Source: Lentisphaerota bacterium
GTDB taxonomy: Bacteria > Verrucomicrobiota > Kiritimatiellia > RFP12 > UBA1067
NCBI GenBank assembly: GCA_015061665.1
Contig: SUWC01000026.1
Location: 1-37,583, forward strand
Length of the DNA stretch: 37,583 nt
Direction of reading: 5' to 3'
A program made the position numbers and the translations under genes. Below the pieces are notes generated by a model. That model searched no databases. It saw only the letters and a program-made list of their open reading frames with translations, and had not been told where the DNA came from. Shown here one piece after another: positions 2,335-27,015 of this stretch (position 1 is the first letter of the stretch; each line of letters opens with the position of its first letter).

Positions 2335-2580
2335 CGGACTGTCTGCCCTCCATCAGAAGTGATCTTTGCAATATTAGCCTTAATATCTAGTGATTATAGC
2401 AAATTCTGCGTCGAAATGGCATAATCAAGGAAACCTTGATGGCTAAATATGATATAATAACATCATGTCGAACATTGCAATATCCACAGAACTGAGTACA
2501 AAACTCACCGTCGTGTCGTTCATCAGCGCGTGCTTAGCCGCCATAAACGCTCTGCTTGCCGGGGGGAGATAACCTAAACG
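2335..2580. promoter_or_regulatory. Divergent promoter region between GH9 and the plus-strand glycosyltransferases
   Basis: This 246-base gene-free stretch is more AT-rich than its surroundings. A minus-strand TATAAT (2393-2398) would serve the GH9 gene, and a plus-strand TATAAT (2453-2458) would serve the glycosyltransferase pair. Neither has a good -35 hexamer at 16-18 bases, which would suit activator- or alternative-sigma-dependent promoters. A perfect inverted repeat lies between them (separate entry). GGGGAG at 2563-2568 is a Shine-Dalgarno candidate for the ATG at 2581, with a long spacing of 12. Confidence 0.5.
2424..2440. promoter_or_regulatory. Operator-like inverted repeat ATCAAGG-AAA-CCTTGAT
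   Basis: Perfect 7-base arms with a 3-base spacer are centred between the two divergent -10 boxes: 26 bases from the minus-strand one and 13 bases from the plus-strand one. Its position over the expected -35 region of the plus promoter is that of a regulator binding site. No regulator for it is identifiable in the window. Confidence 0.4.
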
Positions 2581-10961: not shown

Positions 10962-11053
10962 CTACCAGCCTACGGCCTTTCCCTCTCGCCCAGACTTCCT
11001 TTCACGAACGCAAAAACACGGTATATGATGTTTTGCTCCGTCAACATGACTAT

Positions 11054-11082
11054 ATTATAGCACAAAATCGCGTTGCGCGTAA
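11054..11082 (-). promoter_or_regulatory. Candidate internal promoter upstream of the flippase gene
   Basis: On the minus strand a perfect TATAAT box (11054-11059) lies in the 127-base gap between the polymerase/ligase and flippase genes, the largest gap inside the polysaccharide array. The -35 (TTACGC at 11077-11082, spacer 17) is poor. It could allow separate transcription of the last five genes. Confidence 0.45.
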
Positions 11083-11088
11083 GGTTCT

Positions 11089-12411
11089 TCACCCCATCTG
11101 CTTTAGCTTCTCCCAGCTCTTGTTGAGGTAGCCTAGGATTGCAAACAGGAACACAAGCAAGAAGAGGTTGATCTGCTGGCGCAGCACCCATTCGAGGCAG
11201 CTCTGGAGATATGCCGCCGTAAGTCCGCCGAGCAGGCCAGCGGGGACAAAAGACCACGGCGTGCCCTTCAGCTTCCAGACAAGGCGGAGGCTCGAGAACC
11301 AGTACCACAGGAACCACGCTATCATTGCGCAGAACGCCGGGATGCCGCATTCAGCCATGACGAGAAGATACACCGTCTCAACGATTCCAGTATAGTTCAA
11401 ATCATAGCCAAGCTTTTCAGATGCGCGATCCTGGTAGAGGTACGGCGGTTGCATCTTGATGCTCCAGTTGTTGATGCCCACGCCCGTAATCGGCTCGGCG
11501 GCGATCATCTCCCTCGCGCAGCACGCGAGCTCGATGCGCGTGTTGCCGGAAGCTTCGGGGGCCTCCTTAAAGCGTTCTATGATTTTGGGAAGCAGCAGCG
11601 CCACGCCTATTGCGCCCATCACCGCAAAGGGGAGGATTCGCTTGAAGACACGCCTTTTCCGCGTCGATAGGAAGCTGCACAAGGTCGCAATGCCGTATGC
11701 CACGGGAATCATCGCTATCGCGCCGCGCGAGTACGACCTGAACGTCGCTATCGCCGCGCAGACGGCACCGATGGCGCACCACCTGCCGAGGCGCGGCTTT
11801 ATGCCAAGCGTCAGATAGCCTGCGAAAAACATAGAGCCGAAAAGCAGCATCGCCATGGCCATGCTGTTCTGGTGGGGGAAGGCTCCATGGGCCTGATAGA
11901 CGCCGGAGAACCGGTCCTTCATCACCATCAGCAGGTTCACAATGGCATAAAGCGAGAAACCGCGAAGGACGGAATCGAGGTCGTCCGTCGCCTTGAGGTA
12001 CGAGTATACCGTCAAGTAGAAGAAGTAAAGAAGTATCATCTTCCATATCTCAAACCAGGCAGTCAGGTAGTTCTCGGCTTTGGAAAGGCTGAGGAGGCAA
12101 AGCAGGAAATAAAGGATGTACAAAAGGAACCCAAACTCCGGAATCAGCCGTTTCAGTTTCCCCTGCAGCTTAAGCGACAGGAGAAGCGCAAACGCGAAGA
12201 GATGCACGACACTGACCTCCATGCCGCGAGCGGAGCCCGTGTAGGATTCCATGGAGAAGAAGTTGATCGACGTCCCGTTGTAGAAAATCAGTCCGGCAAG
12301 CATCGCCCAAAACGCATACTTCTGCCAGCGCCTGTTCATATAAAGGAGAAACGCCAGTGGCGGAACTCCAAGCGCTGCGAAGATGAAAACGATGTATTTC
12401 ACCGCTTGCAA
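11089..12411 (-). CDS. O-antigen ligase / polysaccharide polymerase family protein (Wzy_C-like)
   Basis: The 440-residue membrane protein has about ten to twelve spans and one large extracytoplasmic loop. The family signature includes FRSYSRGAIAM (an Arg-Ser-Arg-Gly motif at the start of a helix) and, in the big loop, EPITGVGINNWSIKM, matching the G.G..N.(f/w) pattern of Wzy_C proteins. These enzymes polymerise undecaprenyl-linked repeats (Wzy) or ligate polymer to an acceptor (WaaL); sequence alone rarely separates the two. With a Wzx, Wzz and Wza in the same array and no core-lipid genes, a polymerase role is more likely. It lies 7 bases after the exporter gene. Confidence 0.82.
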   Translation of the reverse strand: MQAVKYIVFIFAALGVPPLAFLLYMNRRWQKYAFWAMLAGLIFYNGTSINFFSMESYTGSARGMEVSVVHLFAFALLLSLKLQGKLKRLIPEFGFLLYILYFLLCLLSLSKAENYLTAWFEIWKMILLYFFYLTVYSYLKATDDLDSVLRGFSLYAIVNLLMVMKDRFSGVYQAHGAFPHQNSMAMAMLLFGSMFFAGYLTLGIKPRLGRWCAIGAVCAAIATFRSYSRGAIAMIPVAYGIATLCSFLSTRKRRVFKRILPFAVMGAIGVALLLPKIIERFKEAPEASGNTRIELACCAREMIAAEPITGVGINNWSIKMQPPYLYQDRASEKLGYDLNYTGIVETVYLLVMAECGIPAFCAMIAWFLWYWFSSLRLVWKLKGTPWSFVPAGLLGGLTAAYLQSCLEWVLRQQINLFLLVFLFAILGYLNKSWEKLKQMG

Positions 12412-15461: not shown

Positions 15462-16706
15462 TCATATTTTGTCATAAAAATCAACCGCCCTTCTCCCAAG
15501 CTCGTTCCAGTCGTAGTTTCGGGCCGCTGCAAGGCCAGCCTGTGACATTTCACGCCCCTTTTTCGACGCCTTGCCCACGCCAAGCTCGGACAGTGCGTCG
15601 TCAAGCGCCTTCGCATTGCCAGGCGGAAACACGATGGCCGCGTCTGGATGCGTCGCGCAAAGCCTGCTCAGTCCGCCGACGTCGCTGGCGATGACGGGAA
15701 GTCCCGAAGCCCACGCCTCTAGGACAGCTATGCCAAACGGCTCATGCCTGCTCGGCAGGACGAACACGTCGGCATTGGCGTATTCGGATACGAGTGCTTC
15801 GCTCCCCGGCGGAAGCGCGCCTACAAACGACACGCGGTCCGCAACGCCAAGCTCAAGGGCGCGCCGCTCCAGCTCGTCCTTGTATTCCGGCTGCGTCACG
15901 GGCCCGACGAGCCGAGCCTTCATGCCAGGGTGCCGAGCAAGCGCCTCGACTATCATCATCTGGTTCTTCTGCCTGTCTATCCTCGCGACGCAGAGGATGG
16001 TGAAGGAGGGATGGGGAACGGGGAATGGGGAATGGGGAACGGGGGCGAAAAGCGAGGTATCGACGCCGTTTGGAAGATATATTACGTTGGGGTGAATCCT
16101 GCTGTACTTGAAGTATTCATCTTCGCCGACGCAAACTATTCCTTCAAACTCCTCCGGAACGCGCCGAGTCCAGCGCATCAGGTGGTCCACGATCTTGCCC
16201 CAGGGGAAGAGTCCGCGCGTCGGAGCCTTCAGGCTCGCAGCTTCGGCTTCCGGAATGTTCGCGCTGCCGCCATGCAGCGAAATGACCGTTTTAGCTGGAA
16301 GCTGCGAATTGGAAGTCGGGATTTGCTGGGCTGTGCGAAGGCAGAGCTCCGCAATTCGCGCCATGGCATGGCAGTGGATGACGCCGGGCCTCCATTCGCG
16401 CAGAGCCTTTCCAAGCCCCGGCACGAAGGGATTGCCGCCCTTCCTGTCGAGTTCGTCGACAAGACTATTCGACATCGGCCACCATGGATATATGGGCTTG
16501 TACCTGGCGATTTCGATGCCGTCGACGACTTCCAGTTCCCCATTACCCGCTCCCCGTTCCCCTTTTCCCCGCCACAGCGCCGTAGTGGCGAAGAGGCGCA
16601 CTTCGTGCCCTGCGGCCTTCTGCGCCTTCGCGAGGTTCCACACGACCTGCTCCGTACCGCCCCAGTCGTCGAACGACAGCCTTCTCAGAACATGTGCAAT
16701 TCTCAT
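15462..16706 (-). CDS. Glycosyltransferase family 4 with three heptamer-repeat insertions
   Basis: The start at 16706 is supported by AAGGAGG just upstream and by the 4-base ATGA overlap with the permease-kinase gene; the longer frame upstream is only a shadow. The 414-residue enzyme begins MRIAHVLRRLSFDDWGGTEQ (GT4 glycine loop), has FTILCVARIDRQKNQM (235-250) and VSFVGALPPGSEALVSEYA, and carries the EX7E pair at Glu322/Glu330 (EPFGIAVLE). It is a cytoplasmic retaining transferase. Three tandem 7-base repeat tracts are translated: residues about 46-59 (GKGERGAGNGELE), 127-140 (QIPTSNSQLPAKT) and 221-236 (PVPHSPFPVPHPS). All three fall in loops between core strands; the last is the linker between the two Rossmann domains. 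Confidence 0.9.
   Translation of the reverse strand: MRIAHVLRRLSFDDWGGTEQVVWNLAKAQKAAGHEVRLFATTALWRGKGERGAGNGELEVVDGIEIARYKPIYPWWPMSNSLVDELDRKGGNPFVPGLGKALREWRPGVIHCHAMARIAELCLRTAQQIPTSNSQLPAKTVISLHGGSANIPEAEAASLKAPTRGLFPWGKIVDHLMRWTRRVPEEFEGIVCVGEDEYFKYSRIHPNVIYLPNGVDTSLFAPVPHSPFPVPHPSFTILCVARIDRQKNQMMIVEALARHPGMKARLVGPVTQPEYKDELERRALELGVADRVSFVGALPPGSEALVSEYANADVFVLPSRHEPFGIAVLEAWASGLPVIASDVGGLSRLCATHPDAAIVFPPGNAKALDDALSELGVGKASKKGREMSQAGLAAARNYDWNELGRRAVDFYDKI
16011..16045. repeat. Heptamer array A: five copies of AYGGGG(A/G)
   Basis: The units are ATGGGGA, ACGGGGA, ATGGGGA, ATGGGGA, ACGGGGG with no interruption. On the coding (minus) strand they read as Pro/His/Phe/Val-rich sequence in the interdomain linker of the GT4 protein. 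The reading frame is preserved on both sides. Confidence 0.9.
16293..16320. repeat. Heptamer array C: four degenerate units of AGCTGGA type
   Basis: The units are AGCTGGA, AGCTGCG, AATTGGA, AGTCGGG. They encode IPTSNSQLPA on the minus strand, in a loop before a predicted beta-strand (VISLHG) of the GT4 N-terminal domain. Confidence 0.65.
16535..16570. repeat. Heptamer array B: GTTCCCC-type units, inverse of array A
   Basis: The units are GTTCCCC, ATTACCC, GCTCCCC, GTTCCCC, followed by TTTTCCCC. They are the reverse complement of the GGGGAAY family seen at 16011-16045, so the two arrays face each other 490 bases apart in the same gene. They encode GKGERGAGNGEL. Confidence 0.85.
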
Positions 16707-19579
16707 CGCGCCTCCTTTGCTAGCATTTCGACGAGCTTGTCCCGCGTCACCGGCTTGAGGAGGATGTCGTCGAACCCGACCTCCTCGTACTTTCCGCGGA
16801 ACTCGACGTCCGCCGTTACGACGACGACGCGCAGTCCCGAAAGCGCGGGATCGGCGCGGATCGCCCTTACAAGAGTCTCTCCGTCCATGTGCGGCATCCA
16901 CATGTCCGTCAGCACCAAGTCGAAGTTTTCCGCGCCCTTGGACCTCAGCAGGTCAAGAGCCTCCTGTCCGTCCGCGGCAGAAGAGACTTCGTGCAGTCCG
17001 AGGTTCTTCAGCTGCGCCTTCATGACCATGACGTTCATCTTGGAGTCGTCCACGACGAGGATGCGGAGATGCGAGTTGGAGTTGGAGTTTTGAGTTGGAG
17101 TATAGATTCCTGCATCCTTTCTCGAACTCGAACTATTCTCTCCAACTTCACTTTCCACGACTTTCACCCCCGGTATCGTCACCGTAAACGTCGACCCCTT
17201 TCCAAGCGTCGAGACGACGTCCATCCTGCCGCCCATCGCCGAGACAAGCTGCTTGCAGATAGCAAGCCCGAGCCCCGTGCCGCCGTTGCGCGACTTCGTG
17301 GACCCGACCTGAACGTATGCCGAGCCGATGAGTCCAAGGTCCTCCTCGCTTATGCCGCACCCCGTATCCTCGACCGCGACTCGCAGCGTGCCGGAGTGCC
17401 CTCTGGACGTTACCTCGAACGACGCTCGCACCTCGACATATCCTTCATGTGTGAACTTGACTGCGTTTCCGACGAGATTGAATGCGATCTGCCTTACGCG
17501 CTGCGGGTCGATCACCAGCCTTGGCATGACGTCCGCACGGCAGCGCACCTCAACGCCCGCATCCCTGCCCGCAAGCCTGAAGGCTTCCGTGACTTCGCGC
17601 AGAAGCCTCGTGCAGTCCGTTGGCTCGGGAACTATCGACATCTTCCCCGACTCCAGCTTCGAAAGGTCCAGCACGTCGTTGACAAGCCCAAGGAGGGTCC
17701 TGCCGCTCGAGACTATGGAATCGACGGCCTGGTCCCGTTCGGCGGCGGTCTTGAAGCCGGTCTTCAGCATCTCGGAAAAGCCGATGATCGCGTTCAGGGG
17801 CGTGCGTATGTCGTGGCTGACCGTCGAGAAGAAGTAGCTCTTTGCCTGAGCCTTCTCCTGCTCCATTCTCAGCTCGCGACGCCTCATGGCGATGTAGACG
17901 GCGATCATCAGCGCAAGCGCCAGGACGGTAAGGACAATCTGCGCCATGCTGCTGCGGATTATGGAATTGCGGACTACCCGCAGGTCGCGCCGGAGGGATG
18001 CATCCCACGCCTTTTCGCGGACGGTCTCGTCGCCGCCCTTTGCGCCTTCCCCGCCGAACAGCTCGACGTGGCTCTCCACTATCTCGCTGTAGGCTTTGCG
18101 CACAGCCTCGGAAGCAGTCTGCCGCGCCCAGATGTACGAAAGCGAAACGATCACCATGAAAAGGGACACCCACACGACGGAGGAGCGTCCGAACCTGTGC
18201 GAGCCGTCTCGGTGAAAGGCGAACAGGAAGAAGGCAAGCCCCGCAATGCACAGGAGGACCATCGCGAGATACGAAACATTCCCCATTGTGGAGGAAACCG
18301 CAGGCAGGAGGAAAACGACGGCTATCGCCACGGCGAAAACAAAACCGACAAGCCCTGTCGCCGTAGAGACGCGGTCGCCGTCCCTCTTCGCCAGCTTGAA
18401 GGCGGCGGCGGACGTGTATGCATACGCCACCGCGGCTCCTACGAGCGCGATGTCGACGATGACTGAGATAGCGGGTTGGCCGATCGCGGACGTTGCGACC
18501 GCGGCAGCTGCGATTACGAACGCGGAATTCCTCGAGGACAGCACCCCGTTCTTTCTGCCAAGCCACAGCGGCATCGCGCCGTCGTCTGCCATGGCCGCGA
18601 GAAGCTTGCTGGCGACGACCGTGTTCCCCACGAGGTTTGTGAACAGCGCGGAGATGAGCGTTACGCAGAGCACCGCAGGCCCGGCCGCGCCAAGGCCCCC
18701 TTTTACCATGTCGAAGGCAAGAATGTTCGCGTCGCCTGGCTGCGAGACCGCCGCAACCCACCCGGCGCCGTCACCGCCCGACGCGAGCACCGGAATCAAC
18801 ACCCCCATGGCATACGCAACAACGGAAGCCGCAATCGCAGCTGCCATTACCCAGAAGGACTTGCGGACAGGGAATCGGAACTCGGCGGAAATGCAGGATA
18901 TGGATTCAATCCCCACGAAAAGCCACGGCGAAATCAGGAGAACGCCGAACAGCTGCGACATTGCCCCGCCTCCGTGCGGCGAGAAGAACGGACGCAATGT
19001 GGCGACGCCTCCCATGTGACCAGTCGCAGCGGCGCAGAAGCAGACGACGATTCCTGCTGCCATCACGACGGCAAGCGCCGTCTGCACCGCAGCCGCGATC
19101 CTTCGCCTGCAGGTCAGCGCGAGAACGACGCTCATGGCCACCGCCACTATCAATATGTCGCCCAGGCACACCCTGAACCCCGCGACACAGTACTTGAACC
19201 CGAAATGGAGCGGATTCCCACCTATCAGATAGCGGACAATCACGGTCAGCATCTCTGCATCGGCCCAGACTATCGCCGCGTATCCGAGGGACAGGAACCA
19301 GGCGCATATATATCCGTGGTCGTGTCCGAACGCCTTCTTGGCATAGGTGTAAACTCCGCCTATGCCTGGATACTTCCCCATCATATAGTGGAAATTCCAC
19401 GCTATGACGACCATCACAAGCGCGGTCACTGCAAGGCCAAGCAACGTGCCGACCGGTCCTGCCTTGGGAAGGAACTCCGTCCACGGCAGGACAAGAACGT
19501 CCCATCCCACGGCACATCCGAATGCCACCGCCCACGCCCCGAAGGCGGAAAGATGCATTAGGTGTCCTCTGTCTTTCAT
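16703..19579 (-). CDS. APC-family permease fused to hybrid sensor histidine kinase (permease-HisKA-HATPase-REC)
   Basis: This is a single 958-residue frame. Residues 1-455 are a 12-span amino-acid/polyamine/organocation permease (KYPGIGGVYTYAKKAFG at 69-85 and an RKNG-containing loop at 342-345). Its first helix reads GCAVGWDVLVLPW rather than the usual GSGIF-type motif. A further span (about 467-485), an approximately 60-residue extracytoplasmic loop and a last span (546-565) lead to the kinase: SHDIRTPLNA (His589), NLVGNAVKFT (Asn705), EDTGCG (737-742) and GGTGLGLA (766-773). A heptamer-derived linker (808-838) precedes a receiver with LTDMWMPHMDG (Asp892) and LKPVT (Lys942). It probably senses a transported solute and passes phosphate to the Hpt protein. 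GGAGG lies 6 bases before the ATG, and the start overlaps the previous stop. Confidence 0.92.
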   Translation of the reverse strand: MKDRGHLMHLSAFGAWAVAFGCAVGWDVLVLPWTEFLPKAGPVGTLLGLAVTALVMVVIAWNFHYMMGKYPGIGGVYTYAKKAFGHDHGYICAWFLSLGYAAIVWADAEMLTVIVRYLIGGNPLHFGFKYCVAGFRVCLGDILIVAVAMSVVLALTCRRRIAAAVQTALAVVMAAGIVVCFCAAATGHMGGVATLRPFFSPHGGGAMSQLFGVLLISPWLFVGIESISCISAEFRFPVRKSFWVMAAAIAASVVAYAMGVLIPVLASGGDGAGWVAAVSQPGDANILAFDMVKGGLGAAGPAVLCVTLISALFTNLVGNTVVASKLLAAMADDGAMPLWLGRKNGVLSSRNSAFVIAAAAVATSAIGQPAISVIVDIALVGAAVAYAYTSAAAFKLAKRDGDRVSTATGLVGFVFAVAIAVVFLLPAVSSTMGNVSYLAMVLLCIAGLAFFLFAFHRDGSHRFGRSSVVWVSLFMVIVSLSYIWARQTASEAVRKAYSEIVESHVELFGGEGAKGGDETVREKAWDASLRRDLRVVRNSIIRSSMAQIVLTVLALALMIAVYIAMRRRELRMEQEKAQAKSYFFSTVSHDIRTPLNAIIGFSEMLKTGFKTAAERDQAVDSIVSSGRTLLGLVNDVLDLSKLESGKMSIVPEPTDCTRLLREVTEAFRLAGRDAGVEVRCRADVMPRLVIDPQRVRQIAFNLVGNAVKFTHEGYVEVRASFEVTSRGHSGTLRVAVEDTGCGISEEDLGLIGSAYVQVGSTKSRNGGTGLGLAICKQLVSAMGGRMDVVSTLGKGSTFTVTIPGVKVVESEVGENSSSSRKDAGIYTPTQNSNSNSHLRILVVDDSKMNVMVMKAQLKNLGLHEVSSAADGQEALDLLRSKGAENFDLVLTDMWMPHMDGETLVRAIRADPALSGLRVVVVTADVEFRGKYEEVGFDDILLKPVTRDKLVEMLAKEAR
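17072..17104. repeat. Array D: GAGTTG/GAGTTTT tandem units in the kinase-receiver linker
   Basis: The units alternate 6 and 7 bases: GAGTTG, GAGTTG, GAGTTTT, GAGTTG, GAGT. On the minus strand they encode TPTQNSNSNS. A second weaker tract (about 17123-17157, TCGAACT/CGAACTA/TTCTCTC/CAACTTC/ACTTTCC) adjoins it and encodes ESEVGENSSSS. Together they form most of the linker between the ATPase and receiver domains. Confidence 0.65.
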
Positions 19580-21483
19580 CTATATCCTCCAATCAAAGAC
19601 CGCAGCGACAGCCAGCCGAACTTGACAAGCCCATAAGCATAGCGCCGCCAGAGCCGCTTTGGCTCCTGTATTATGCGGTAGATCCACTCAAGCCCTGACT
19701 TCTGCATCCACCTCGGCGCGCGCTTCACGCGTCCGGCGATGAAGTTGAACGTTCCGCCGATTCCGATCATCACGCCAGCATCCAGCTTCGGCGCGTTCCT
19801 GCCCATCCAAAGCTCCTGCTTCGGATTCCCCAGCGCGACGAAGAGAATGTCGGGCCTCGCCGCGTTTATGCGTTCAACTATTTCAGGCTGCTCCTCGTCG
19901 AGCTTGACATAGGCGGGATCGATTCCGGCAACTCTCAACTCCCGACTCCCAACTCTCAACTTCCTAAACGCCTCCTCTATCGCTCCCCTGTCACCGCCGA
20001 GTACGTATACAGACAAGCCTTCCTCGGCACAGCGGCGGCAGATTGCCGGAACCATGTCGGCTCCCGTGGCGCGTCCTGGGATCGGACACCCCAGCATCTT
20101 CGACAGAAGGACGATCGGCATGCCGTCCGCGGTAACGAAGTCCGCGTTCCTGAGATAGCCCCACAGTTCGTCGTTTCCGCCAAACGGCCAGCCGCTCACT
20201 GCGTTCGTCACGAAGTCGACGTTCAGCGTTGCGACGAAGGCCGGTTTCCGAGCTGGAGTTACCATGTGCTCCAACTTTCCCCTCTTTGCAAAAGAGATTA
20301 TGCGCTCGACGGCTTCAGTCTCGGTGACGCGAGCAACGGGTATGCCGAAGAGACGCGAGACACCTTTTTGCCCAAGCAGCTTCGCAATTCCCTTCGCATG
20401 GTCCTCCCACGAGAAGCGCTTGATCCATTCGCGCCCGCGTGCAATCCGCGCGGCGCGGTCTTCCATGGACTCGGAGAAAAGCCGCATAAGCGTGTTGGCG
20501 ATTGCATCGACGTCGTAAGGATCGAACGTCATCGCGACATCGCCGGCGATCTCGCCAAGGGAGCCGTTGTTAGAGCATGCGCACGGAATGCCGCGGTCCA
20601 TCGCCTCGATCAGCGAAAGGCCGAATCCCTCGAACAGGCTAGGGAAGACATAGAACCCCGCTTCGCCCCAGAGGCGCGGCATTTCCGCCGCGTCGACGAA
20701 CCCGGTGAAGCGCACAAGGTCGGCGTATGGAGAATTCCGAGCCGCCTCATGGACGACTTCCGCATCCTTCCAGTCAGCGCCGGCGATCACCAGCGGATGC
20801 GCCTCGGCGACTTCGCGCGGCAGCTTGCCATACGCCTCTATTAGCCTCACGTGGTTCTTCCCCGGATGCTCGATGCGGGAAATGTAGAGGAGACTTCGCA
20901 CTTCGGACTTCGGGCTTCCGGTCTCGCTCCGAAGTCCTTCGCTATTCCGAAGTCCGAAGTCCGAAGCCCGAAGTCCGTTGTAAAGCACCGTGACGTCCTC
21001 CGCGCGGCAGTGCCAGTACTTCACCATGTCGGTCTTCGTGGCCTCGCTGACTGCGACGAGGTGCTGCGCGCGCTTGGCGAAGAACGGCAGCACATGGGCG
21101 AGGTAGAACATGCGCAAGCGCGAGTACTTGCCGGGAATGTGGAAGTTTGCAAGATCATGGATTGTCGCCGTTGTAGGAATGGGATACCGCAGACAGACGC
21201 GCCTATTCGCTGCGCAAATGACAAAGCCGTCGAACTCCTTCCTGTGCCGCTTGATCCACCGCGGCAGAAAAAGCAAATGCCAAAGCATGCTGAACACAGC
21301 CCTACGCGTCCAACCAGGAGCAAAAATATAATGTAACTCCGACTCTTCTTTGCGAGCCGAAGGTTCGCAAAGAAGAGTCAGCTCATGTCCCTGGCGCGCA
21401 AGCTCGCGCACGACTTCGCGGACGTATTCGGAGATTCCGCTCCGCCCGCCGTCGTACGGGATGCATGACACCAGTATCCTCAT
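19576..21483 (-). CDS. Bifunctional glycosyltransferase: GT4 domain fused to WecG/TagA/CpsF (GT26) domain
   Basis: The start at 21483 follows GGGAGG by 8 bases and lies 2 bases after the kinase stop. The 635-residue product joins two enzymes. Residues 1-375 are GT4: MRILVSCIPYDGGRSGISEY, LLYISRIEHPGKNHVRLIEA, and the EX7E region FEGFGLSLIEAM (284-295). Residues 376-635 are GT26: FVATLNVDFVTNA, NADFVTADGMPIV (446-458), ALGNPKQELWM (550-560), GIGGTFNFIAGRVKRAPRW (574-592), and EPKRLWRRYAYG. GT26 enzymes add ManNAc, ManNAcA or glucose to a polyprenyl-PP-linked sugar. The fusion would add two sugars in sequence. Two heptamer tracts (residues about 170-200 and 508-520) and a hairpin (about 37-49) are translated within it. 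Confidence 0.92.
   Translation of the reverse strand: MRILVSCIPYDGGRSGISEYVREVVRELARQGHELTLLCEPSARKEESELHYIFAPGWTRRAVFSMLWHLLFLPRWIKRHRKEFDGFVICAANRRVCLRYPIPTTATIHDLANFHIPGKYSRLRMFYLAHVLPFFAKRAQHLVAVSEATKTDMVKYWHCRAEDVTVLYNGLRASDFGLRNSEGLRSETGSPKSEVRSLLYISRIEHPGKNHVRLIEAYGKLPREVAEAHPLVIAGADWKDAEVVHEAARNSPYADLVRFTGFVDAAEMPRLWGEAGFYVFPSLFEGFGLSLIEAMDRGIPCACSNNGSLGEIAGDVAMTFDPYDVDAIANTLMRLFSESMEDRAARIARGREWIKRFSWEDHAKGIAKLLGQKGVSRLFGIPVARVTETEAVERIISFAKRGKLEHMVTPARKPAFVATLNVDFVTNAVSGWPFGGNDELWGYLRNADFVTADGMPIVLLSKMLGCPIPGRATGADMVPAICRRCAEEGLSVYVLGGDRGAIEEAFRKLRVGSRELRVAGIDPAYVKLDEEQPEIVERINAARPDILFVALGNPKQELWMGRNAPKLDAGVMIGIGGTFNFIAGRVKRAPRWMQKSGLEWIYRIIQEPKRLWRRYAYGLVKFGWLSLRSLIGGYR
19929..19963. 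repeat. Heptamer array E: five copies of CRACTYC/T
   Basis: The units are CAACTCT, CAACTCC, CGACTCC, CAACTCT, CAACTTC, contiguous. They encode KLRVGSRELRVAG in the GT26 domain, at the loop between the nucleotide-fold helix (EEAFRKL) and the next strand, where relatives usually have a short YPGL-type turn. Confidence 0.9.
20892..20977. repeat. Heptamer array F: inverted GACTTCG and CCGAAGT arrays
   Basis: Five units (GACTTCG, CACTTCG, GACTTCG, GGCTTCC, GGTCTCG; 20892-20926) face four units (CCGAAGT, CCGAAGT, CCGAAGC, CCGAAGT; 20947-20974). A perfect 15-base inverted repeat (20904-20918 with 20963-20977) joins the two halves, so the transcript can fold into a long stem. The tract encodes residues about 171-197 of the GT4 domain, in the linker before LLYISRI. 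Confidence 0.9.
21341..21379. repeat. Perfect hairpin element read through in the GT4-GT26 gene
   Basis: The arms are GACTCTTCTTTGCGA (21341-21355) and TCGCAAAGAAGAGTC (21365-21379). The inner G-T and two C-G pairs extend the stem to 18 pairs with a GAA triloop. The element encodes LCEPSARKEES on the minus strand, a surface loop near the start of the protein. There is no T-run and it lies inside the frame, so it is not a terminator; it resembles a small palindromic element inserted in frame. Confidence 0.8.
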
Positions 21484-21485
21484 CG

Positions 21486-24400
21486 CTACGCCCTCCCGAA
21501 GAGGTGCGAGAGCTTCTCGCCGGTGACGGGCTTGGACATGACGTCGGCGAACAGCGACATGTCGTACGACGAGCCGACATCGACGTCTGCGGTGACCGCG
21601 ACTATCGGTATCTCCGCCAGCTCGCGGTCCTTCCGCATCGCCTCGGCCAGCTGGGTGCCGTCCATCTTCGGCATCCACATGTCGGTCAGGACAAGGTCAG
21701 GCTTCCACTCGCGCATGACCTCCAGCGCGTTGCATCCGTTATCCGCATAGCGGATCTCCTTGATCCCGAAGTTGCCGAGGTGTATGCCGAGGATCTTGCG
21801 GTTCATCTGCATGTCGTCAACCACGAGGACCCTCTGCGGCAGCACAGTTGTGATCGCGGCCGCGGCGGACTTGACTGACGGCAGCTGCTCCTTCGCGAGC
21901 ATGAGGCCTGGGATGTCGATCAGGAAAGTGGTGCCCTTTCCGAGCGTGCTGTGGACCGTTATCGTGCCCTTCGCGCTCTCGACCATGCGCTTCACGATGG
22001 GGAGCCCGAGCCCGGTGCCCTTCTTGTCCCCCTCGTTCGCGTTTATGCGGCTGGCGATGTCCTGCACGAACGGATCGAAGAGCCTGGCCATCTTCTCGTC
22101 GGAGATGCCGCATCCCGTGTCGCGTATCTCGACGTGGAGCGTGCTCGTTTCCTCGAGCCACGTGGCCATGACGACGATCTCGCCCTTCTCGGTGAACTTC
22201 GCCGCGTTGCCGACGAGGTTGATCAGTATCTGGCGCATTCCCTGCTGGTAGAACTCCAGGACCGGTATGGGCCTGTCGCTGTCAGTAAGCACGCGCAGCT
22301 TCACTCCGTGCCGGCGGACGCGGTAGCCGAATATCGCTGGCAGCTCCTTGAGAAGCTTGTTCATGTCGCAGGCGCCCGAGCGCATGTCCATCGCCCCTGC
22401 GTCGAGCTTCGACAGGTCGAGTATGTCGTTGATCAGCTCCAGCAGCGCGTTGGAGCTGAGAAGGATACCCTCGGTATACTCCCTGCGGCGCTCCTCCCCG
22501 ATGTTAGGTCGCGACAGAAACTCCGCGAACCCGACGACGGCGTTGAGCGGCGTTCGCAGCTCGTGGGACATCATTGCGAGGAACCTTGTCTTCGCCTGCG
22601 CCATCTCCTCGGCCGCCGCCGCGGCCCTGTTGGCGCGCTTGACCTGCCTGCGAAGGAGCGCGCCCATGACGATTCCGTATATCGCGATGATGCCGACGAT
22701 GCAAATGCCTGTCCGCGTGAGCACGCCAACCAGCTCGTCGCGCGTCATGCCGAATATCCGGTGCTCGACATGGGTCTCGGCGAGCGCCGCGAAGAACATC
22801 TCCTGGAGGTGCGACGGGTCGATGTCGGAAAGCACCTTTCTGATTATGGACACGAGCTCCACGGGAACGTCGCGCCTCGCGAACATCTCGAACTCCTGCT
22901 GGTGGTCAGCGCAGCCGAGCTCCTTCGCGACCGTCTGCGGAACGGGCAGTGAGTAGACTGGCGTCGCGGCGTACACGGCAGGCCCGCTTTTGGCTGGGTA
23001 CGGGACCCAGAAGTCCGTCTCGCCGCGCATGAACTTAGCCTCAGCCGTCTGTATGCCCGTCTGGGCCTGCGGGAGGAAGATCAGCCCCGTGCGGCGCGAC
23101 ATCTCGGCGAGCAGCGCGCCGATAAAGCCGTCCGGCCTTCCCTTCGAATCGATCAACGGGTACGGCCAGGGGGAGAAGTCGATGTAGACGGGCTTGGAGG
23201 ACTGCACCCTGTCCTTCAGCCACTGCGTCTCCTGAAGCGAAAGCGCGGCCATGTTGCTGCGGTCGCCGTAGTGGTGCTCGCTGATCATCCTCTGGTACTT
23301 CGGGAAGTCGTCGCAGACCTCGTCCAGCGCCTGCTCCAGCTCCGAGAACAGATCGGGGCGCTTCGTCGACGTGCAGATGTACATCGGGTGGGCCGTGTAG
23401 ATGTGCAGCGCCTCCTCGTTGGCGAGACCGGGCATCTCGACGTCCACGCAGGCATCGACTTCTCCCGCGAAATAGGCGTTGAGCATGTCGAGGTCAGACG
23501 AGAACTCCTTGTACGAAATCCCCGAATCGGCGTCGAACTGGCGCTTTGCGCGCTCGGCGCTGACGGTGCCGGAGAGAAGTCCGACCTTCATTCCGCGCCA
23601 CGTCGCCGGATCGCCGGGCTTGTACGGGCTGCCCGGGTGGGCCCACAAGTAGACGCGCAGCATGCCGATTGGCGTGTGGGGGAAAAGGAAGTTGTTGCGG
23701 CGCGAAGGCGAAAACCCGATGCCGCCGACTAGGTCCAGTCTGCCGTTCTTGACGTCCTCCAGGCTCTCGTCGTACCCGCCGTAGACGAAGTCGACGGTCC
23801 ACCGCGTATACGTGCAGATCGTCTTCAGCCAGTTATCGAGCGCGCCCTCGCGCGTTCCGTCTTCGGCGACGTTGAAGAGTCCGCCGCGGCAGTAGGCCGC
23901 CGCCCTGACCCTGTGCTGCGGCTTGCGCAGCCCCAGTATCGTCTCCTTCCACTCGTCTATCCTGTCGATGTCGTCGATATACACCTCGCGGTACGCCTTC
24001 ACGAGCTTCCTGTACAGCTCGTTCTTGTCCTTGCGCACGGCGAAGTAGACGTTGCGGTCGCCTATCGGCACGACCTCGACGAGGCCCTCGGGACGCTTTC
24101 CGAACGGCGTGTAGAGAAACAGGACGTCGATTTCGCCCTTCTGCAGGGCATCGACGGCGCCTGCGCTCGTAGGGTACTCCACGTACTTCGGCGTCAGGCG
24201 GGCCTGCTCGAAGTAGTGCTCGCGGTCGGTGTTCTGGCCCTGGGACACCGGCGAATAGCCGACGCGCAGGCGCGGCCACTCCGTGATCTTCTGGGACATC
24301 ATGGCCATCGACCGCTGCGGGGTCGCGTAGAGCGCGCAGTGCATGCACCCGATCGGCTGGAGCGGGTATACGTAGTTCTCCGAAAGCTCAGGCGTCCTGA

Positions 24401-24668
24401 ACGCCGAGCAGATCACGTCGGCCTTCGACTTCTCGATGAGGCCGTCTGCGCCGAACTCTACCCTCTCGGTCTCCAGTCCTGCGCGGACGAACACCTCGTG
24501 CATGACGGTCGTGCAGTACCGCACGTCAGCGGAAGCCCAGTAGTCCAGCTTAGAATCGCGTACGCAGTCGGCTACCGTTGCACTTTCCGCCTGGGCGGAA
24601 AGTGAATGTAAAATGGAAAATGAAAAATGTAAAATTAAAAATGGAATAAGTTTTTTCATAGTTTTCAA
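21486..24668 (-). CDS. Hybrid sensor histidine kinase with periplasmic binding-protein-like domains (BvgS/EvgS type)
   Basis: The 1060-residue protein has a signal peptide (about 4-27, core LIPFLILHFSFSILHSL). Two complete SBP_bac_3/Venus-flytrap-like domains follow (about 30-255 and 256-480), and a shorter third-like region (490-640). A membrane span (651-673) leads to HisKA with SHELRTPLNA (His702), NLVGNAAKFT (Asn821), DTGCG (850-854), GTGLGLP (884-890), and a receiver with LTDMWMPKMDG (Asp996) and SKPVT (Lys1046). A periplasmic CMHC (108-111) is unusual. Such kinases bind small solutes and signal by phosphorelay; the receiver needs an Hpt partner, and one lies in the same array. The start may be ATG 24668 or 24659. 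No Shine-Dalgarno is visible, and heptamer arrays occupy both the leader and the signal-peptide codons. Confidence 0.9.
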   Translation of the reverse strand: MKTMKKLIPFLILHFSFSILHSLSAQAESATVADCVRDSKLDYWASADVRYCTTVMHEVFVRAGLETERVEFGADGLIEKSKADVICSAFRTPELSENYVYPLQPIGCMHCALYATPQRSMAMMSQKITEWPRLRVGYSPVSQGQNTDREHYFEQARLTPKYVEYPTSAGAVDALQKGEIDVLFLYTPFGKRPEGLVEVVPIGDRNVYFAVRKDKNELYRKLVKAYREVYIDDIDRIDEWKETILGLRKPQHRVRAAAYCRGGLFNVAEDGTREGALDNWLKTICTYTRWTVDFVYGGYDESLEDVKNGRLDLVGGIGFSPSRRNNFLFPHTPIGMLRVYLWAHPGSPYKPGDPATWRGMKVGLLSGTVSAERAKRQFDADSGISYKEFSSDLDMLNAYFAGEVDACVDVEMPGLANEEALHIYTAHPMYICTSTKRPDLFSELEQALDEVCDDFPKYQRMISEHHYGDRSNMAALSLQETQWLKDRVQSSKPVYIDFSPWPYPLIDSKGRPDGFIGALLAEMSRRTGLIFLPQAQTGIQTAEAKFMRGETDFWVPYPAKSGPAVYAATPVYSLPVPQTVAKELGCADHQQEFEMFARRDVPVELVSIIRKVLSDIDPSHLQEMFFAALAETHVEHRIFGMTRDELVGVLTRTGICIVGIIAIYGIVMGALLRRQVKRANRAAAAAEEMAQAKTRFLAMMSHELRTPLNAVVGFAEFLSRPNIGEERRREYTEGILLSSNALLELINDILDLSKLDAGAMDMRSGACDMNKLLKELPAIFGYRVRRHGVKLRVLTDSDRPIPVLEFYQQGMRQILINLVGNAAKFTEKGEIVVMATWLEETSTLHVEIRDTGCGISDEKMARLFDPFVQDIASRINANEGDKKGTGLGLPIVKRMVESAKGTITVHSTLGKGTTFLIDIPGLMLAKEQLPSVKSAAAAITTVLPQRVLVVDDMQMNRKILGIHLGNFGIKEIRYADNGCNALEVMREWKPDLVLTDMWMPKMDGTQLAEAMRKDRELAEIPIVAVTADVDVGSSYDMSLFADVMSKPVTGEKLSHLFGRA
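24605..24646. repeat. Heptamer array G1: six copies of AATGNAA in signal-peptide codons
   Basis: The units are AATGTAA, AATGGAA, AATGAAA, AATGTAA, AATTAAA, AATGGAA. On the minus strand they read as FLILHFSFSILHS, the hydrophobic core of the kinase signal peptide. Confidence 0.9.
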
Positions 24669-24670
24669 AC

Positions 24671-24703
24671 ATTACACTTTACATTTTACATTTTCCACTC
24701 ACT
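24671..24703. repeat. Heptamer array G2: ATTTTAC-type units in the 34-base intergenic leader
   Basis: The units ACTTTAC, ATTTTAC, ATTTTCC, ACTCACT fill the gap between the STAS stop and the kinase start. They are the inverse of array G1: CATTTTACATT at 24682-24692 is the exact reverse complement of 24605-24615. The kinase start codon therefore lies in the loop of a possible mRNA stem. Confidence 0.85.
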
Positions 24704-25026
24704 CAGAATTTCGCGTCCTCTACCTTCGGCACGATTTCAAACACGCGGCTGACCTTGGTTATGTCGAAGACTATCTTGGGCGCCGGCTGCAGCGCGGCGA
24801 GTATGACCTTCCCTCCTCCCGCCTTCGCCTTCTGCAGGATCTGCACCAGCACGCCGAGTCCGCTCGAGTCGATGTGTACCATCTGGCTCAGGTCGAAGAG
24901 AACGTTCATTCCGTCTTTCATCCTGGCAAACACGTCCTCGCGCAGAGACGGCGCCACGGCCGCCACAAGACGCCCATGCACCGCTACGTTAAGCCTGTTG
25001 CCGTCATCGTTGATTTCCCATGCCAT
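24703..25026 (-). CDS. STAS-domain protein (anti-sigma-factor-antagonist type)
   Basis: The 107-residue protein is a single STAS domain, the usual size for SpoIIAA/RsbV/HsbA proteins. The phosphorylation-site region is VLFDLSQMVHIDSSGLGVLV, in which the second Ser of DSSG is the residue phosphorylated in SpoIIAA-type proteins. KAGGGKVILAALQPAPKIVF is the typical next strand and helix. AAGGAG lies about 8 bases before the ATG. Such proteins are phosphorylated by a HATPase-type kinase and dephosphorylated by a PP2C phosphatase, and their state sets whether they bind a partner. Both enzyme activities occur on one protein encoded at 28056-29726 in the same array, which makes that protein the obvious partner. 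The downstream target is not identifiable. Confidence 0.9.
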   Translation of the reverse strand: MAWEINDDGNRLNVAVHGRLVAAVAPSLREDVFARMKDGMNVLFDLSQMVHIDSSGLGVLVQILQKAKAGGGKVILAALQPAPKIVFDITKVSRVFEIVPKVEDAKF

Positions 25027-25060
25027 TTTCTTTTCTCCTTGATGTTCGTTGTTAAAACCC

Positions 25061-26077
25061 TCAGTTGAAGACCTCCCAGTCCCGCATAAGCGAGTCCGAG
25101 GCCGTCTTTCCCTCGCGCACCGCGCGCGAAATCCTCTTCAGGACGCGCACGACGCAGTCCTGTCCAAGCGTCGCCACGTCGCCCAGCGTCTTCCTTCGCG
25201 CGACCCAGCGCGCAGCCTGGTATACGCTCCGCCCGAGCGCGCGCTGCGCGTCGCCGCTGCGCATCACCTCGTCCTCCGCCGCAAGCCACGCCTCGCGCGC
25301 GGCCTTCCAGTCGCAGACGGCGCTGCCCGACGGACGGAACTTCCACTCGACCGCGCGCATGTAGAGCGAGTCGCCGAGGTTCCTCGCGCGGTCCGTCGCT
25401 CTCCATGCGTAGGCATGGCGCGCAATGAGCCTCGCGTCGCCCGCGCCGAGTATGCACTTGTTGATGTTGCGGTTTACGAAATCCTTTGCTTTTTCGTCCA
25501 ACGACGTCCTCTTGGCATTATCCGGCCCGCCGCCGATTCTGCATTTCGCTTTTTCCATTTTGCATTTTGCCAGAAGCAGCCCCATACCGCGGTTCATCAG
25601 CAGCCGCGCGGACTCCATCCACGGAAACATCTCCGGCCCGCGCCGCTCTATGCCGGCGAAAAGCGTCTCGCCCTTCTCGCCGGCGACGTCGAAGTACCCG
25701 TGCAGAAGCTCCTGTATCATCACGCGCTCGCGGTCGTGCTTCATGCGCCAGTGGGTCTTTGCAGGACAGAAGTCCACGTCGACTCCAACCTTCCTGGTCC
25801 AGCTTTCGGAAACCGGCGCGAGCATGTCGCCTATCGCCGCAAGCTCGGCGTCGCTGGATCCGTCCTCAGCTACGACGTAGAAGTCAAGGTCGTTCGACAG
25901 GGTCTGGTGTCCATCAACCTCGCGCACACCTCCTTCGCCGCGCGCATAGCCACCGCCCAGCACGACCCCGCGCAGGCGCGGAATGCGCATGGCCTCGATC
26001 TGGCGTCCGACTCCCCAGGCGACCGCGTCGACAAGCTCGTCCATTTCGGGAGCGCATCCTGCCACGTAGCGTCCCAT
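25061..26077 (-). CDS. Nucleotidyltransferase-fold protein of unknown role
   Basis: I place the start at ATG 26077, where TGATG overlaps the previous stop and GGAGG lies about 8 bases upstream; this gives 338 residues. VVLGGGYARGEGG (38-50) and LSNDLDFYVV (60-69) fit the GG..RGE....SDhDh signature of Pol-beta-like nucleotidyltransferases. VGVDVDFCP (about 97-105) could give the third acidic residue. The C-terminal half is helical and Arg/Ala-rich with no family I recognise. A heptamer array is translated at about 169-181 (LAKCKMEKAKCRI). It sits between the LbH gene and STAS. It could nucleotidylate a sugar, a protein or a small molecule; nothing in the sequence decides. Confidence 0.65.
   Translation of the reverse strand: MGRYVAGCAPEMDELVDAVAWGVGRQIEAMRIPRLRGVVLGGGYARGEGGVREVDGHQTLSNDLDFYVVAEDGSSDAELAAIGDMLAPVSESWTRKVGVDVDFCPAKTHWRMKHDRERVMIQELLHGYFDVAGEKGETLFAGIERRGPEMFPWMESARLLMNRGMGLLLAKCKMEKAKCRIGGGPDNAKRTSLDEKAKDFVNRNINKCILGAGDARLIARHAYAWRATDRARNLGDSLYMRAVEWKFRPSGSAVCDWKAAREAWLAAEDEVMRSGDAQRALGRSVYQAARWVARRKTLGDVATLGQDCVVRVLKRISRAVREGKTASDSLMRDWEVFN
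25536..25570. repeat. Heptamer array H: five copies of ATTTTGC type
   Basis: The units are ATTCTGC, ATTTCGC, TTTTTCC, ATTTTGC, ATTTTGC. They encode AKCKMEKAKCRI on the minus strand within the nucleotidyltransferase-fold gene, giving a Cys/Lys-rich segment unlike the rest of the protein. The frame is intact. Confidence 0.88.
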
Positions 26078-27015
26078 CAGGAGCTCCTCCCGTGCGAGCG
26101 TCCGCGGAGGAAGTGCCAGATCGGCGCCAGCCAGCCGAGGCCCCATTCCATGTAGCGCGCGAGCCCCGGCTCCTCCAGATCCGTCCAGGCCCCGGTCTCG
26201 GCGTCGATTATCCTGCTTCCAGCGACAATTTTGTTCTCGAGGTCTAGCGCGTGCCCGATGTACGTGTTCGCCCCGACGACCGTCTTCTTAAGGCGCGTTC
26301 CCTCGCCTACCACGGCACCGTGAGAGACGATCACGTCGCCCTCAATCTGGACGTTGCGCCCGATCCACGTGTTGTCGGCGAGAAGGACTGGTCCCGCTAT
26401 CTCAGCGCCATGCTCGATGACGACATTGCGCCCGAGGTAAACGCCCTCTTCGGCGGAATAGCAGGGAAACGAGAACTTGCCTGGCGTGTGCAGCACCGCC
26501 ATGTTGACCTTGTGCCACGTCTTGACGTCGTGCAGCGCGACGCCTACGGGGCGTATCTGCATCCACTTTCCGTCGAGCCATAGGTAGAAGCCCATGGGCG
26601 TGCTGCGGCAGTCCTCGGGCGAGACGGGGGAAAGCGTGACCTCCTCGGGCATGTGTCCGGAAAGGCACAGCCCCCACGCGACGGCGAGCCCGTTCGGCAT
26701 CTTCGAGGCGAGGATGCCCTGTCCGCACGCGACAAGGTCGTCGAGCCCGCGCGGCATCGGGCCAGTCGCCCTTGTGTAGGTAAATGCATACGGACGTATC
26801 TTCGAGGCGGAATACTCGTTGGCAAGCCTCTCTGAATACTTCCAGTCGAGTATCTCTATGTTGCAGACCCGGAAGTCCTCCGCGCGTTCAAGGCAGAAGT
26901 CGAGCAGACGCCGTCCGCATATCATCAGCTGCGCCGGAGACCACCAGGGGAGAAGCTCGGTCACCCACTGTGTCTGCTGCACGGACGGAACGTATAGAAC
27001 GCTGTCGAACGTCAT
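26077..27015 (-). CDS. Left-handed beta-helix (hexapeptide) protein, sugar nucleotidyltransferase-like
   Basis: ATG at 27015 shares one base with the stop of the sugar-transferase gene (TGATG). Of 312 residues, about 190-270 form hexapeptide repeats: GVYLGRNVVIEHGAEIAGPV, ADNTWIGRNVQIEGDVIV, and VVGEGTRLKKTVVGANTYIG. This is the LbH fold of acyltransferases and of the C-terminal part of GlmU-like sugar-1-phosphate nucleotidyltransferases. The N-terminal 180 residues lack the GxGxRxxP signature of active nucleotidyltransferases. The protein is therefore more likely a degenerate relative, an acyltransferase, or a scaffold. The C-terminus (WGLGWLAPIWHFLRGRS) is aromatic and basic and may touch the membrane. 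The context points to sugar modification for the polysaccharide. Confidence 0.65.
   Translation of the reverse strand: MTFDSVLYVPSVQQTQWVTELLPWWSPAQLMICGRRLLDFCLERAEDFRVCNIEILDWKYSERLANEYSASKIRPYAFTYTRATGPMPRGLDDLVACGQGILASKMPNGLAVAWGLCLSGHMPEEVTLSPVSPEDCRSTPMGFYLWLDGKWMQIRPVGVALHDVKTWHKVNMAVLHTPGKFSFPCYSAEEGVYLGRNVVIEHGAEIAGPVLLADNTWIGRNVQIEGDVIVSHGAVVGEGTRLKKTVVGANTYIGHALDLENKIVAGSRIIDAETGAWTDLEEPGLARYMEWGLGWLAPIWHFLRGRSHGRSS

What the first reader, a model, noticed from the sequence alone, without database searches (positions are those of the whole stretch)
16011..25570. Degenerate 7-base tandem repeats of several unrelated families, all translated in frame
Seven or eight tracts (16011, 16293, 16535, 17072, 19929, 20892, 24605/24671, 25536) share a period of 7 (6-7 at 17072) but not a sequence: AYGGGGA, AGCTGGA, GAGTTG, CAACTCY, CCGAAGT, AATGNAA/ATTTTAC, ATTTTGC. 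All lie within 10 kb of one operon, every gene frame stays open, and the encoded peptides look foreign to their proteins. I saw none in the housekeeping block or before 15 kb. Heptamer repeats (STRR) are known in filamentous cyanobacteria, but dispersal of many families into coding loops is unusual. A shared period with varied sequence suggests a generating mechanism (slippage or templated synthesis) rather than copying of one element.
Basis: partly seen in the sequence, partly recalled or inferred. Interest (0 to 1): 0.85.

Follow-up and report, generated by a model that had tools for sequence, protein, structure and literature searches.

The report
Seven-base repeats invading protein loops
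This bacterium's genes carry short stretches of a repeated seven-letter DNA word, slipped into flexible protein loops without breaking the genes; related species fill the same loops with different repeated words, so the words appear to spread inside each genome and to be replaced over time.

Summary
The period-7 tracts are real, and the genome prefers seven: 15 tracts in 516 kb, against 0, 1 and 2 of periods 5, 6 and 8. The window's seven "unrelated" families reduce to about four once reverse complements are joined; 16293 is at most a remnant. Coding tracts lie in length-variable loops and domain linkers. In one glycosyltransferase linker, 8 of 15 orthologues carry period-7 or -8 tracts of six different units; seven carry none. 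Units burst by lineage: GGGGAAY has 163 places here and 0 backwards; CCACGAA dominates a congener, an octamer others. The window's two inverted pairs form strong hairpins. In three bursts, neighbouring units are no more alike than shuffled ones, which argues against single-unit slippage in place. Best reading: non-autonomous short-unit arrays spread within each genome and survive in intergenic seams and tolerant loops. The copying step is unknown: Ku was not found, a reverse transcriptase is not needed, and viral contigs show no excess. Heptamer bursts are known, as are in-frame palindromic insertions in Rickettsia; their combination, with turnover of units at fixed loops, is the new part.

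The parts
16013..16044 (+). GGGGAAY heptamer array; on the gene's - strand it encodes VPHSPFPVPHPS between the two glycosyltransferase domains of the GT4 protein at 15462-16700
   Evidence: passes no tandem-repeat threshold; loop comparison
16535..16571 (-). GGGGAAY array, opposite orientation to 16013, encoding KGERGAGNGE in a variable loop of the same GT4 protein
17072..17103 (-). GGAGTTG / CAACTCC array (period 6-7) in the linker between the HATPase and response-regulator domains of the permease-histidine kinase at 16703-19579
19929..19961 (-). CAACTCY array encoding LRVGSRELRV, in a variable loop of the WecG-like domain (protein 19576-21486)
20893..20918 (-). GACTTCG/CCGAAGT array, one arm of an inverted pair (encodes SPKSEVRS)
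20946..20977 (-). GACTTCG array, other arm of the inverted pair (encodes ASDFGLRNSE), in the interdomain linker of the GT4-WecG protein
   Evidence: (20885-20985 RNA fold z -4.95)
24605..24646 (-). AATGNAA array, one arm of an inverted pair; forms the hydrophobic core of the likely signal peptide (LILHFSFSILHSL) of the SBP-histidine kinase-REC protein at 21486-24668
   Evidence: 24598-24700 fold z -4.73
24672..24694 (-). TTACATT array, other arm, upstream of the same gene; the gene's likely start lies between the arms
25536..25570 (-). ATTTTGC array encoding KCKMEKAKC in a length-variable loop of the protein at 25061-26146 (no Pfam family found)

Best explanation
The tracts belong to lineage-specific families of short-unit tandem arrays (unit mostly 7 bp, in relatives also 8 and 9) that multiply to many sites within one genome as non-autonomous sequences. 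They persist where they do little harm: between genes, at seams between repeated intergenic modules, and in loops, linkers and one signal peptide of proteins. Shown: the excess of period 7; bursts of one unit per genome; the same loop filled by different units in different species; in-frame tolerance; hairpins at the window's two inverted pairs; and a strongly two-state unit position with no likeness between neighbours in three bursts. Inferred: that new arrays arise by copying from arrays already in the genome during repair-type DNA synthesis, where the short phase lets the growing strand re-anneal out of register and snap back (giving inverted arms), and that single-unit gain and loss by slippage acts later and is minor.
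For: Period: 15 tracts against 0/1/2 for periods 5/6/8 in 516 kb. Burst: GGGGAAY x3 (one mismatch) has 163 places in this genome; 20 of 40 genomes, own included, have any; backwards control in 2 of 40. CCACGAA x3 has 128 places in G012, 1 each in G009 and G036, 0 in the other 37. The octamer occurs in 7 of 40, its backwards control in none. Loop turnover: 8 of 15 orthologues have a period-7/8 tract in the GT4-WecG linker, six units (GACTTCG, TGTCGCC, AACCACCY, CCACGAA, GGGGAAC, GTTCGAAA), and 7 have none. In G012, G002 and G037 the unit in the loop is one amplified in that genome; whether it is in G008, G009, G023 and G026 was not tested. Other coding tract sites of the window are length-variable in orthologues too, and three tract sites lie in linkers between Pfam domains. 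Two-state position: pos 7 C124:T124 in 54 arrays here, C139:T29 in 36 arrays of G037, A125:G38 in 29 arrays of G012; adjacent like pairs 85, 94, 94 against shuffle means 92.7, 92.0, 92.3. One intergenic module is preceded by heptamers, by an octamer or by no tract in different copies.
Against: No enzyme or donor array was identified. Long shared C/T patterns (5 or more units) are not above shuffles, 3- and 4-unit ones are, so recent block copying is not clearly visible. Most GGGGAAY arrays share no flanking sequence, so no element with ends is seen. In this genome the window's linker holds GACTTCG, which is not its dominant unit, and in contigs picked by number only GGGGAAY is 1 of 7 period-7 tracts. 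The backwards control of CCACGAA is not silent: 17 places in G002, 5 in G029, 1 in G007. Two copies with about 95% identical flanks differ by exactly one unit (28 against 35 nt), so unit gain or loss in place does happen. No empty and filled alleles of one species could be compared.
Confidence: 0.5

Rival explanations
1. Replication slippage in place: each array grew from a local chance duplication; 7 bp is favoured because it matches the DNA length held by the polymerase (the published proposal).
For: Heptanucleotide repeats were reported as the commonest long simple repeats in most genomes surveyed, and 7 nt was proposed as the polymerase contact length (survey of 2007 as cited in PMC4679880 and PMC4692102). 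Different units with one period. One-unit difference between two sister copies.
Against: One unit at dozens of sites in one genome with 0 for its backwards control; no excess of like neighbours in 3 of 3 families (G012 shows a nominal lag-2 excess, P 0.04); orthologues without a tract show none of score 10 or more at the linker.
Confidence: 0.25
2. Templated synthesis: a polymerase with its own short template adds the same unit repeatedly, telomerase-like, with one template position read two ways.
For: Fixed unit with a two-state position, 1:1 in this genome (C124:T124), and no neighbour correlation; lineage-specific unit switching. Four of the 6 genomes with 15 or more GGGGAAY places have an RVT_1 match, against 12 of the other 34 (P 0.2).
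Against: No template or enzyme found. The only RVT_1 match in this genome belongs to a diversity-generating retroelement; G006, G014 and G012 have arrays and no RVT_1 match, though drafts are incomplete. In G037 the second state may be CpG decay (pos 7 T29, pos 1 A24).
Confidence: 0.12
3. The tracts are kept by selection as flexible, hydrophilic linkers or as phase-variation switches of a surface-polysaccharide locus; the repeats are the means, not invaders.
For: Coding GGGGAAY is read with the G-rich strand as sense (GNGERGT-like) in 24 of 27 cases; tracts fall in linkers; 7-bp changes would shift the frame; several window proteins are glycosyltransferases.
Against: 39 of 82 tracts of period 7-9 are intergenic by my gene caller; arrays are imperfect, which should damp switching; 7 of 15 orthologues do without a tract in the linker. 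The coding bias can be survivorship.
Confidence: 0.1
4. Filler DNA made by Ku-dependent end joining at breaks.
For: Tracts sit at seams between modules with varying partners; inverted arms look like snap-back synthesis.
Against: Ku (PF02735) was found in 0 of 40 genomes, this one included; other end-joining routes were not tested.
Confidence: 0.03

Closest known systems
Heptanucleotide simple sequence repeats: GGGAATC in Xanthomonas, GGGGA(C/T)T in Nostoc (PMC4692102), TAACTGA in Beggiatoaceae (PMC4679880), heptamers of Calothrix (cited in PMC4692102)
   Same: Seven-base unit, one unit amplified to many sites of a genome, patchy across lineages, a two-state position in the Nostoc unit.
   Different: Those are described as mainly intergenic; here about half of the tracts examined are coding and in frame, units turn over at the same orthologous loops, and inverted pairs occur (inverted repeats are also mentioned in the discussion of PMC4692102).
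Rickettsia palindromic elements (passages of PMC3767692)
   Same: Inserted in open reading frames without breaking them, in solvent-exposed regions, palindromic; orthologues can carry different groups near one site (possible hotspots).
   Different: RPEs are described as 100-150 bp repeats in sequence groups, not tandem arrays of 7-9 bp units with a genome-specific unit.
Borg tandem repeats that create disordered protein regions (abstract and passages of PMC9879509)
   Same: Tandem DNA repeats partly in genes and partly between them, making flexible protein segments, rapidly evolving.
   Different: In Borgs the unit length inside genes is stated to be divisible by three; here it is 7 or 8.

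Membership tests
Heptanucleotide simple sequence repeats | Tandem 7-bp unit over-represented against other periods | tested here: met
   (15 against 0, 1, 2 for periods 5, 6, 8 in 516 kb); in 80 loci fetched from other genomes by a heptamer pattern: 144 period-7 rows, 77 of them the query unit; the other 67, some of which contain query units, compare with 3 and 8 for periods 6 and 8
Heptanucleotide simple sequence repeats | One unit amplified genome-wide, backwards or neighbouring units rare | tested here: met
   (backwards 0 in this genome); position counts
Heptanucleotide simple sequence repeats | Mainly intergenic | tested here: inconclusive
   14 coding, 18 intergenic of 32, at about 87% coding; (larger, partly chosen for tracts): 43 coding, 39 intergenic of 82. 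Intergenic is over-represented per base, yet about half are coding
Heptanucleotide simple sequence repeats | Copy number changes between strains | not testable with these tools
   one genome per species; only within-genome copies compared
Rickettsia palindromic elements | In-frame insertion into protein loops | tested here: met
   (loops inferred from alignments, not from structures)
Rickettsia palindromic elements | Palindromic, about 100-150 bp, member of a conserved sequence family | tested here: not met
   close inverted partner in 8 of 40 period-7 tracts; the tracts are short tandem arrays; no comparison with RPE sequences was made
Borg amino-acid tandem repeats | Unit length inside genes divisible by three | tested here: not met
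   units of 7 and 8 bp in genes
Reverse-transcriptase product | A reverse transcriptase present wherever arrays are abundant | tested here: not met
   RVT_1 in 16 of 40 genomes; G006, G014 and G012 have arrays and no match; some genomes are incomplete, and heavy-load genomes have it somewhat more often (4 of 6 against 12 of 34, P 0.2)
Phase-variation contingency locus | Reversible copy-number switching with an expression effect | not testable with these tools
   needs isolates or long reads

The most novel reading that the evidence does not exclude
A bacterial system writes short tandem units into the chromosome from a short template, one template position being read two ways. The unit is switched between lineages, so that each species carries its own 'word' of 7, 8 or 9 letters, deposited at breaks or seams and tolerated in protein loops.
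Probability: 0.1. Interest if true: 0.93.

Novelty: new variant of a known kind. Interest (0 to 1): 0.6.

Why it matters
The proposal that bacterial heptamer repeats come from polymerase slippage is cited back to 2007 in the papers read; I saw no direct test of it there. Here three bursts in three genomes give a measurable constraint (a two-state position, no likeness between neighbouring units) that simple unit slippage does not predict, and orthologous loops give a natural record of arrivals and replacements. It also shows a route by which DNA of no protein origin becomes flexible protein segments in several enzymes at once, with a unit length that is not a multiple of three.

Tried and rejected
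Controls did not support that: at 21 bases it occurs in 1 of 288 genomes of the phylum (this one) and its backwards control in 1 of 288. In viral contigs it has 6 stretches against 5 backwards, and GGGGAAY x3 has 17 against 23 backwards. So one search is what a trawl of a very large collection gives, not evidence of transfer; and neither unit is enriched in viruses. GGGGAAY x3 exact in 116 genomes of the class: only this genome; backwards control in 1.

Reverse transcriptase as the maker: not required, though weakly commoner in heavy-load genomes; the one here is a DGR enzyme. Ku end joining: not found. CpG decay as the source of the C/T state: not in this genome (TpG 94, CpA 1); possible in G037. 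Enrichment of the polysaccharide cluster in relatives: weak (25 tracts of period 7-9 in 139 kb of cluster loci of five genomes against 38 in 340 kb elsewhere, summed). Inverted partners: the excess (8 of 40 against 2 direct, 1 reversed, 2 complement at one mismatch) falls on four places, two of them the window's own; outside the window it is 4 of 34, and at three mismatches it shrinks to 11 against 9, 5 and 5. Stop-free units: half of random heptamers are stop-free on both strands, so this says little. Lag-3 excess of C/T states in this genome (P 0.007) was not repeated in the other two families; G012 has a nominal lag-2 excess (P 0.04) and lag-3 deficit (P 0.02).

The reverse-transcriptase statement was softened.
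Full report
OBSERVATION. Tandem Repeats Finder lists period-7 arrays in the window at 16013-16044, 16535-16571, 19929-19961, 20892-20918, 20946-20977, 24605-24640 (period 14 to 24646), 24672-24694 and 25536-25570, and a period-6 array at 17073-17101. An independent scan (match +1, mismatch -2, score 12 or more) finds 6 tracts of period 7, none of periods 4-6 or 8-13, and 3 each of the multiples 14 and 21. The tract at 16293 passes neither. Several units are reverse complements of one another, so the window has about four units, not seven.

IS IT MORE THAN CHANCE. In 515,966 bases of the same genome (35 stretches), period 7 gives 15 tracts at score 14, against 0, 1, 2 and 3 for periods 5, 6, 8 and 9; 10 rows of period 14 are mostly the same arrays. 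Split by how the stretches were picked, period 7 gives 4, 6 and 5 tracts in contigs taken by number only (225 kb), in the rest of four of those contigs (155 kb) and in one long contig (136 kb); periods 5, 6 and 8 together give 0, 1 and 2. GGGGAATGGGGAAT with one mismatch has 172 places in the 3.44 Mb genome and its backwards control none. The window's 6 tracts in 8.7 kb compare with 0.3 expected (interval chosen after the fact).

WHERE THEY SIT IN PROTEINS. The GT4-WecG protein (19576-21486) was aligned with 14 relatives. Its linker lies between the two glycosyltransferase domains (Pfam ends at 172 and resumes at 195; the tracts cover about residues 170-198). In that linker 8 of 15 orthologues, this one included, carry a period-7 or -8 tract and 7 carry none at score 10. 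The units are GACTTCG (three genomes), TGTCGCC, AACCACCY (8 bp), CCACGAA, GGGGAAC and GTTCGAAA (8 bp); no tract of period 4-6 or 9-12 was reported there. The other coding tracts of the window also fall in segments whose length varies between orthologues: three sites of the GT4 protein (11 sequences), one of the 25061-26146 protein (8), the HATPase-receiver linker of the permease-kinase (6), and the signal peptide of the SBP-kinase (9). Compact orthologues lack the insert: where this protein has QIPTSNSQLPAKT, a relative has a short KTGAK turn. One relative (G008) shares NSQL at that site.

BURSTS. Genomes differ in their amplified unit. GGGGAAY x3 (one mismatch; overlapping places, several per array): 163 here, 329 in G037 of another family, 48, 37, 32 and 15 in G002, G010, G014 and G006, fewer than 10 in every other genome with any; 20 of 40 genomes in all, own included; backwards control in 2 of 40. 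CCACGAA x3: 128 in G012, 1 each in G009 and G036, 0 elsewhere; its backwards unit has 17 places in G002, 5 in G029 and 1 in G007, so there it is itself a repeat. The octamer GGTGGTTR: 31, 31, 25, 22, 7, 2 and 1 in seven genomes, backwards 0. In G012, G002 and G037 the unit in the orthologous linker is one amplified in that genome; G008, G009, G023 and G026 were not tested for theirs, and in this genome the linker holds GACTTCG, which is not its commonest unit. GGGGAAY x3 without mismatch occurs in 1 of 116 genomes of the class. The units look lineage-specific and the period is what is shared. Relatives also carry periods 8 and 9.

SHARE OF THE DOMINANT UNIT. GGGGAAY makes up 9 of 18 period-7 tracts (score 12) in the 516 kb sample: 1 of 7 in contigs taken by number, 4 of 6 and 4 of 5 in the longer ones. 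In 927 kb that include stretches fetched because they hold GGGGAAY it is 41 of 59, a biased figure.

STRUCTURE OF ARRAYS. Three families were examined unit by unit; units were accepted with the chosen two letters free at position 7 and at most one other deviation. This genome (54 arrays, 261 units): position 7 is C 124, T 124, while other positions deviate in 2 to 14 units each; 48 of 54 arrays hold both states. G037 (36 arrays, 174 units): C 139, T 29 at position 7, and A 24 at position 1. G012 (29 arrays, 166 units): A 125, G 38 at position 7, with up to 13 deviations at others. Adjacent units agree 85, 94 and 94 times, against shuffle means of 92.7, 92.0 and 92.3. Growth by single-unit duplication should give an excess of like neighbours. 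The result does not exclude slippage followed by long mixing, and a few arrays are paralogous copies that were not removed. C-to-T decay at CpG does not explain this genome (TpG 94, CpA 1).

INVERTED PAIRS. Of 40 period-7 tracts scored 13 or more, 8 have a reverse-complement partner (at most one mismatch in 14) within 200 nt, against 2 direct, 1 reversed and 2 complement. These 8 lie at four places, two in the window; outside it the count is 4 of 34. At three mismatches the counts are 11 against 9, 5 and 5. The pairs at 20885-20985 and 24598-24700 fold far better than shuffles (z -4.95 and -4.73, 0 of 200 shuffles as good), while two single tracts do not (z -0.11 and +1.32). The second pair brackets the likely start of the kinase gene. 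Period-8 and -9 inverted pairs were seen in relatives.

SEAMS. An intergenic module beginning CATGCTGCTTGC is preceded in different copies by GGGGAAT arrays (seven places), by an octamer array (two) or by no array (one), and by different upstream modules. Two copies with about 95% identical flanks have arrays of 28 and 35 nt. Over 82 tracts of period 7-9 in 927 kb, 20 of 164 flanks fall in clusters of three or more similar flanks, against 0 of 164 random ones, so most arrays are naked.

CODING BIAS. By my own simple gene caller, 14 of 32 tracts are coding at 87% coding density, and 43 of 82 in the larger, partly chosen sample. There GGGGAAY is coding in 27 and intergenic in 14 cases; in coding cases the G-rich strand is the coding strand in 24 of 27 (binomial P 5e-5).

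WHAT DOES NOT SEEM TO MAKE THEM. Ku: 0 of 40 genomes. RVT_1: 16 of 40; G006, G014 and G012 have arrays without it; 4 of 6 genomes with 15 or more GGGGAAY places have it against 12 of 34 others, P 0.2. The match in this genome is part of a diversity-generating retroelement. Viral contigs: 6 stretches for one unit and 5 for its backwards control; 17 for GGGGAAY and 23 for its backwards control.

LITERATURE. Read: abstract, introduction and discussion of PMC4692102; passages of PMC4679880 and PMC3767692; abstract, outline and passages of PMC9879509. The 2007 survey of simple repeats and the original RPE papers were seen only as cited there. In seven searches of the held library I saw among the rows listed (10 to 30 each) no paper on unit turnover at orthologous protein loops; subscription papers are mostly not held.

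LIMITS. One genome per species, draft assemblies, no isolates, no structure prediction. The loops are inferred from alignment, not from a model. The copying mechanism is inference.

Noticed in passing
L048 (G000:C6:20001-40000) 501-3936: A likely diversity-generating retroelement: RVT_1 protein, an FGE-sulfatase-fold target with a variable region at 2714-2859 and a template repeat at 713-858. Over 146 bases set side by side without gaps, 15 of 24 differences are at template adenines.
   Followed up: partly
L016 2035-2108, L274 (several), L069 5727-5800, L220 2809-2872: Nonamer hairpins (ACAGGATTA and CACAAAGAA units, inverted arms); several ACAGGATTA ones are preceded by T runs, as in terminator-like elements. 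CACAAAGAA-type tracts occur in at least two genomes of the order.
   Followed up: partly
L057 (G000:C52) 9480-11613: Two copies of an interspersed intergenic module, about 95% alike, flank two small open frames (at most 114 and 85 aa), cassette-like; whether this is an integron-type array was not tested.
   Followed up: no
L218 (G002:C5) 11296-11495: A 200-bp octamer array that flips strand at a spacerless palindrome (GGTGGTTAACTACC).
   Followed up: no
window 24598-24700: The hairpin encloses the likely start of the SBP-histidine kinase gene, and one arm supplies the hydrophobic core of its signal peptide: possible translational control.
   Followed up: partly
L108 1-76, L114 3178-3282, L111 from 1552: Very long heptamer arrays in contigs titled Saprospiraceae and two Mucilaginibacter species (L111 has 23 pattern matches): material for strain-level tests.
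   Followed up: no
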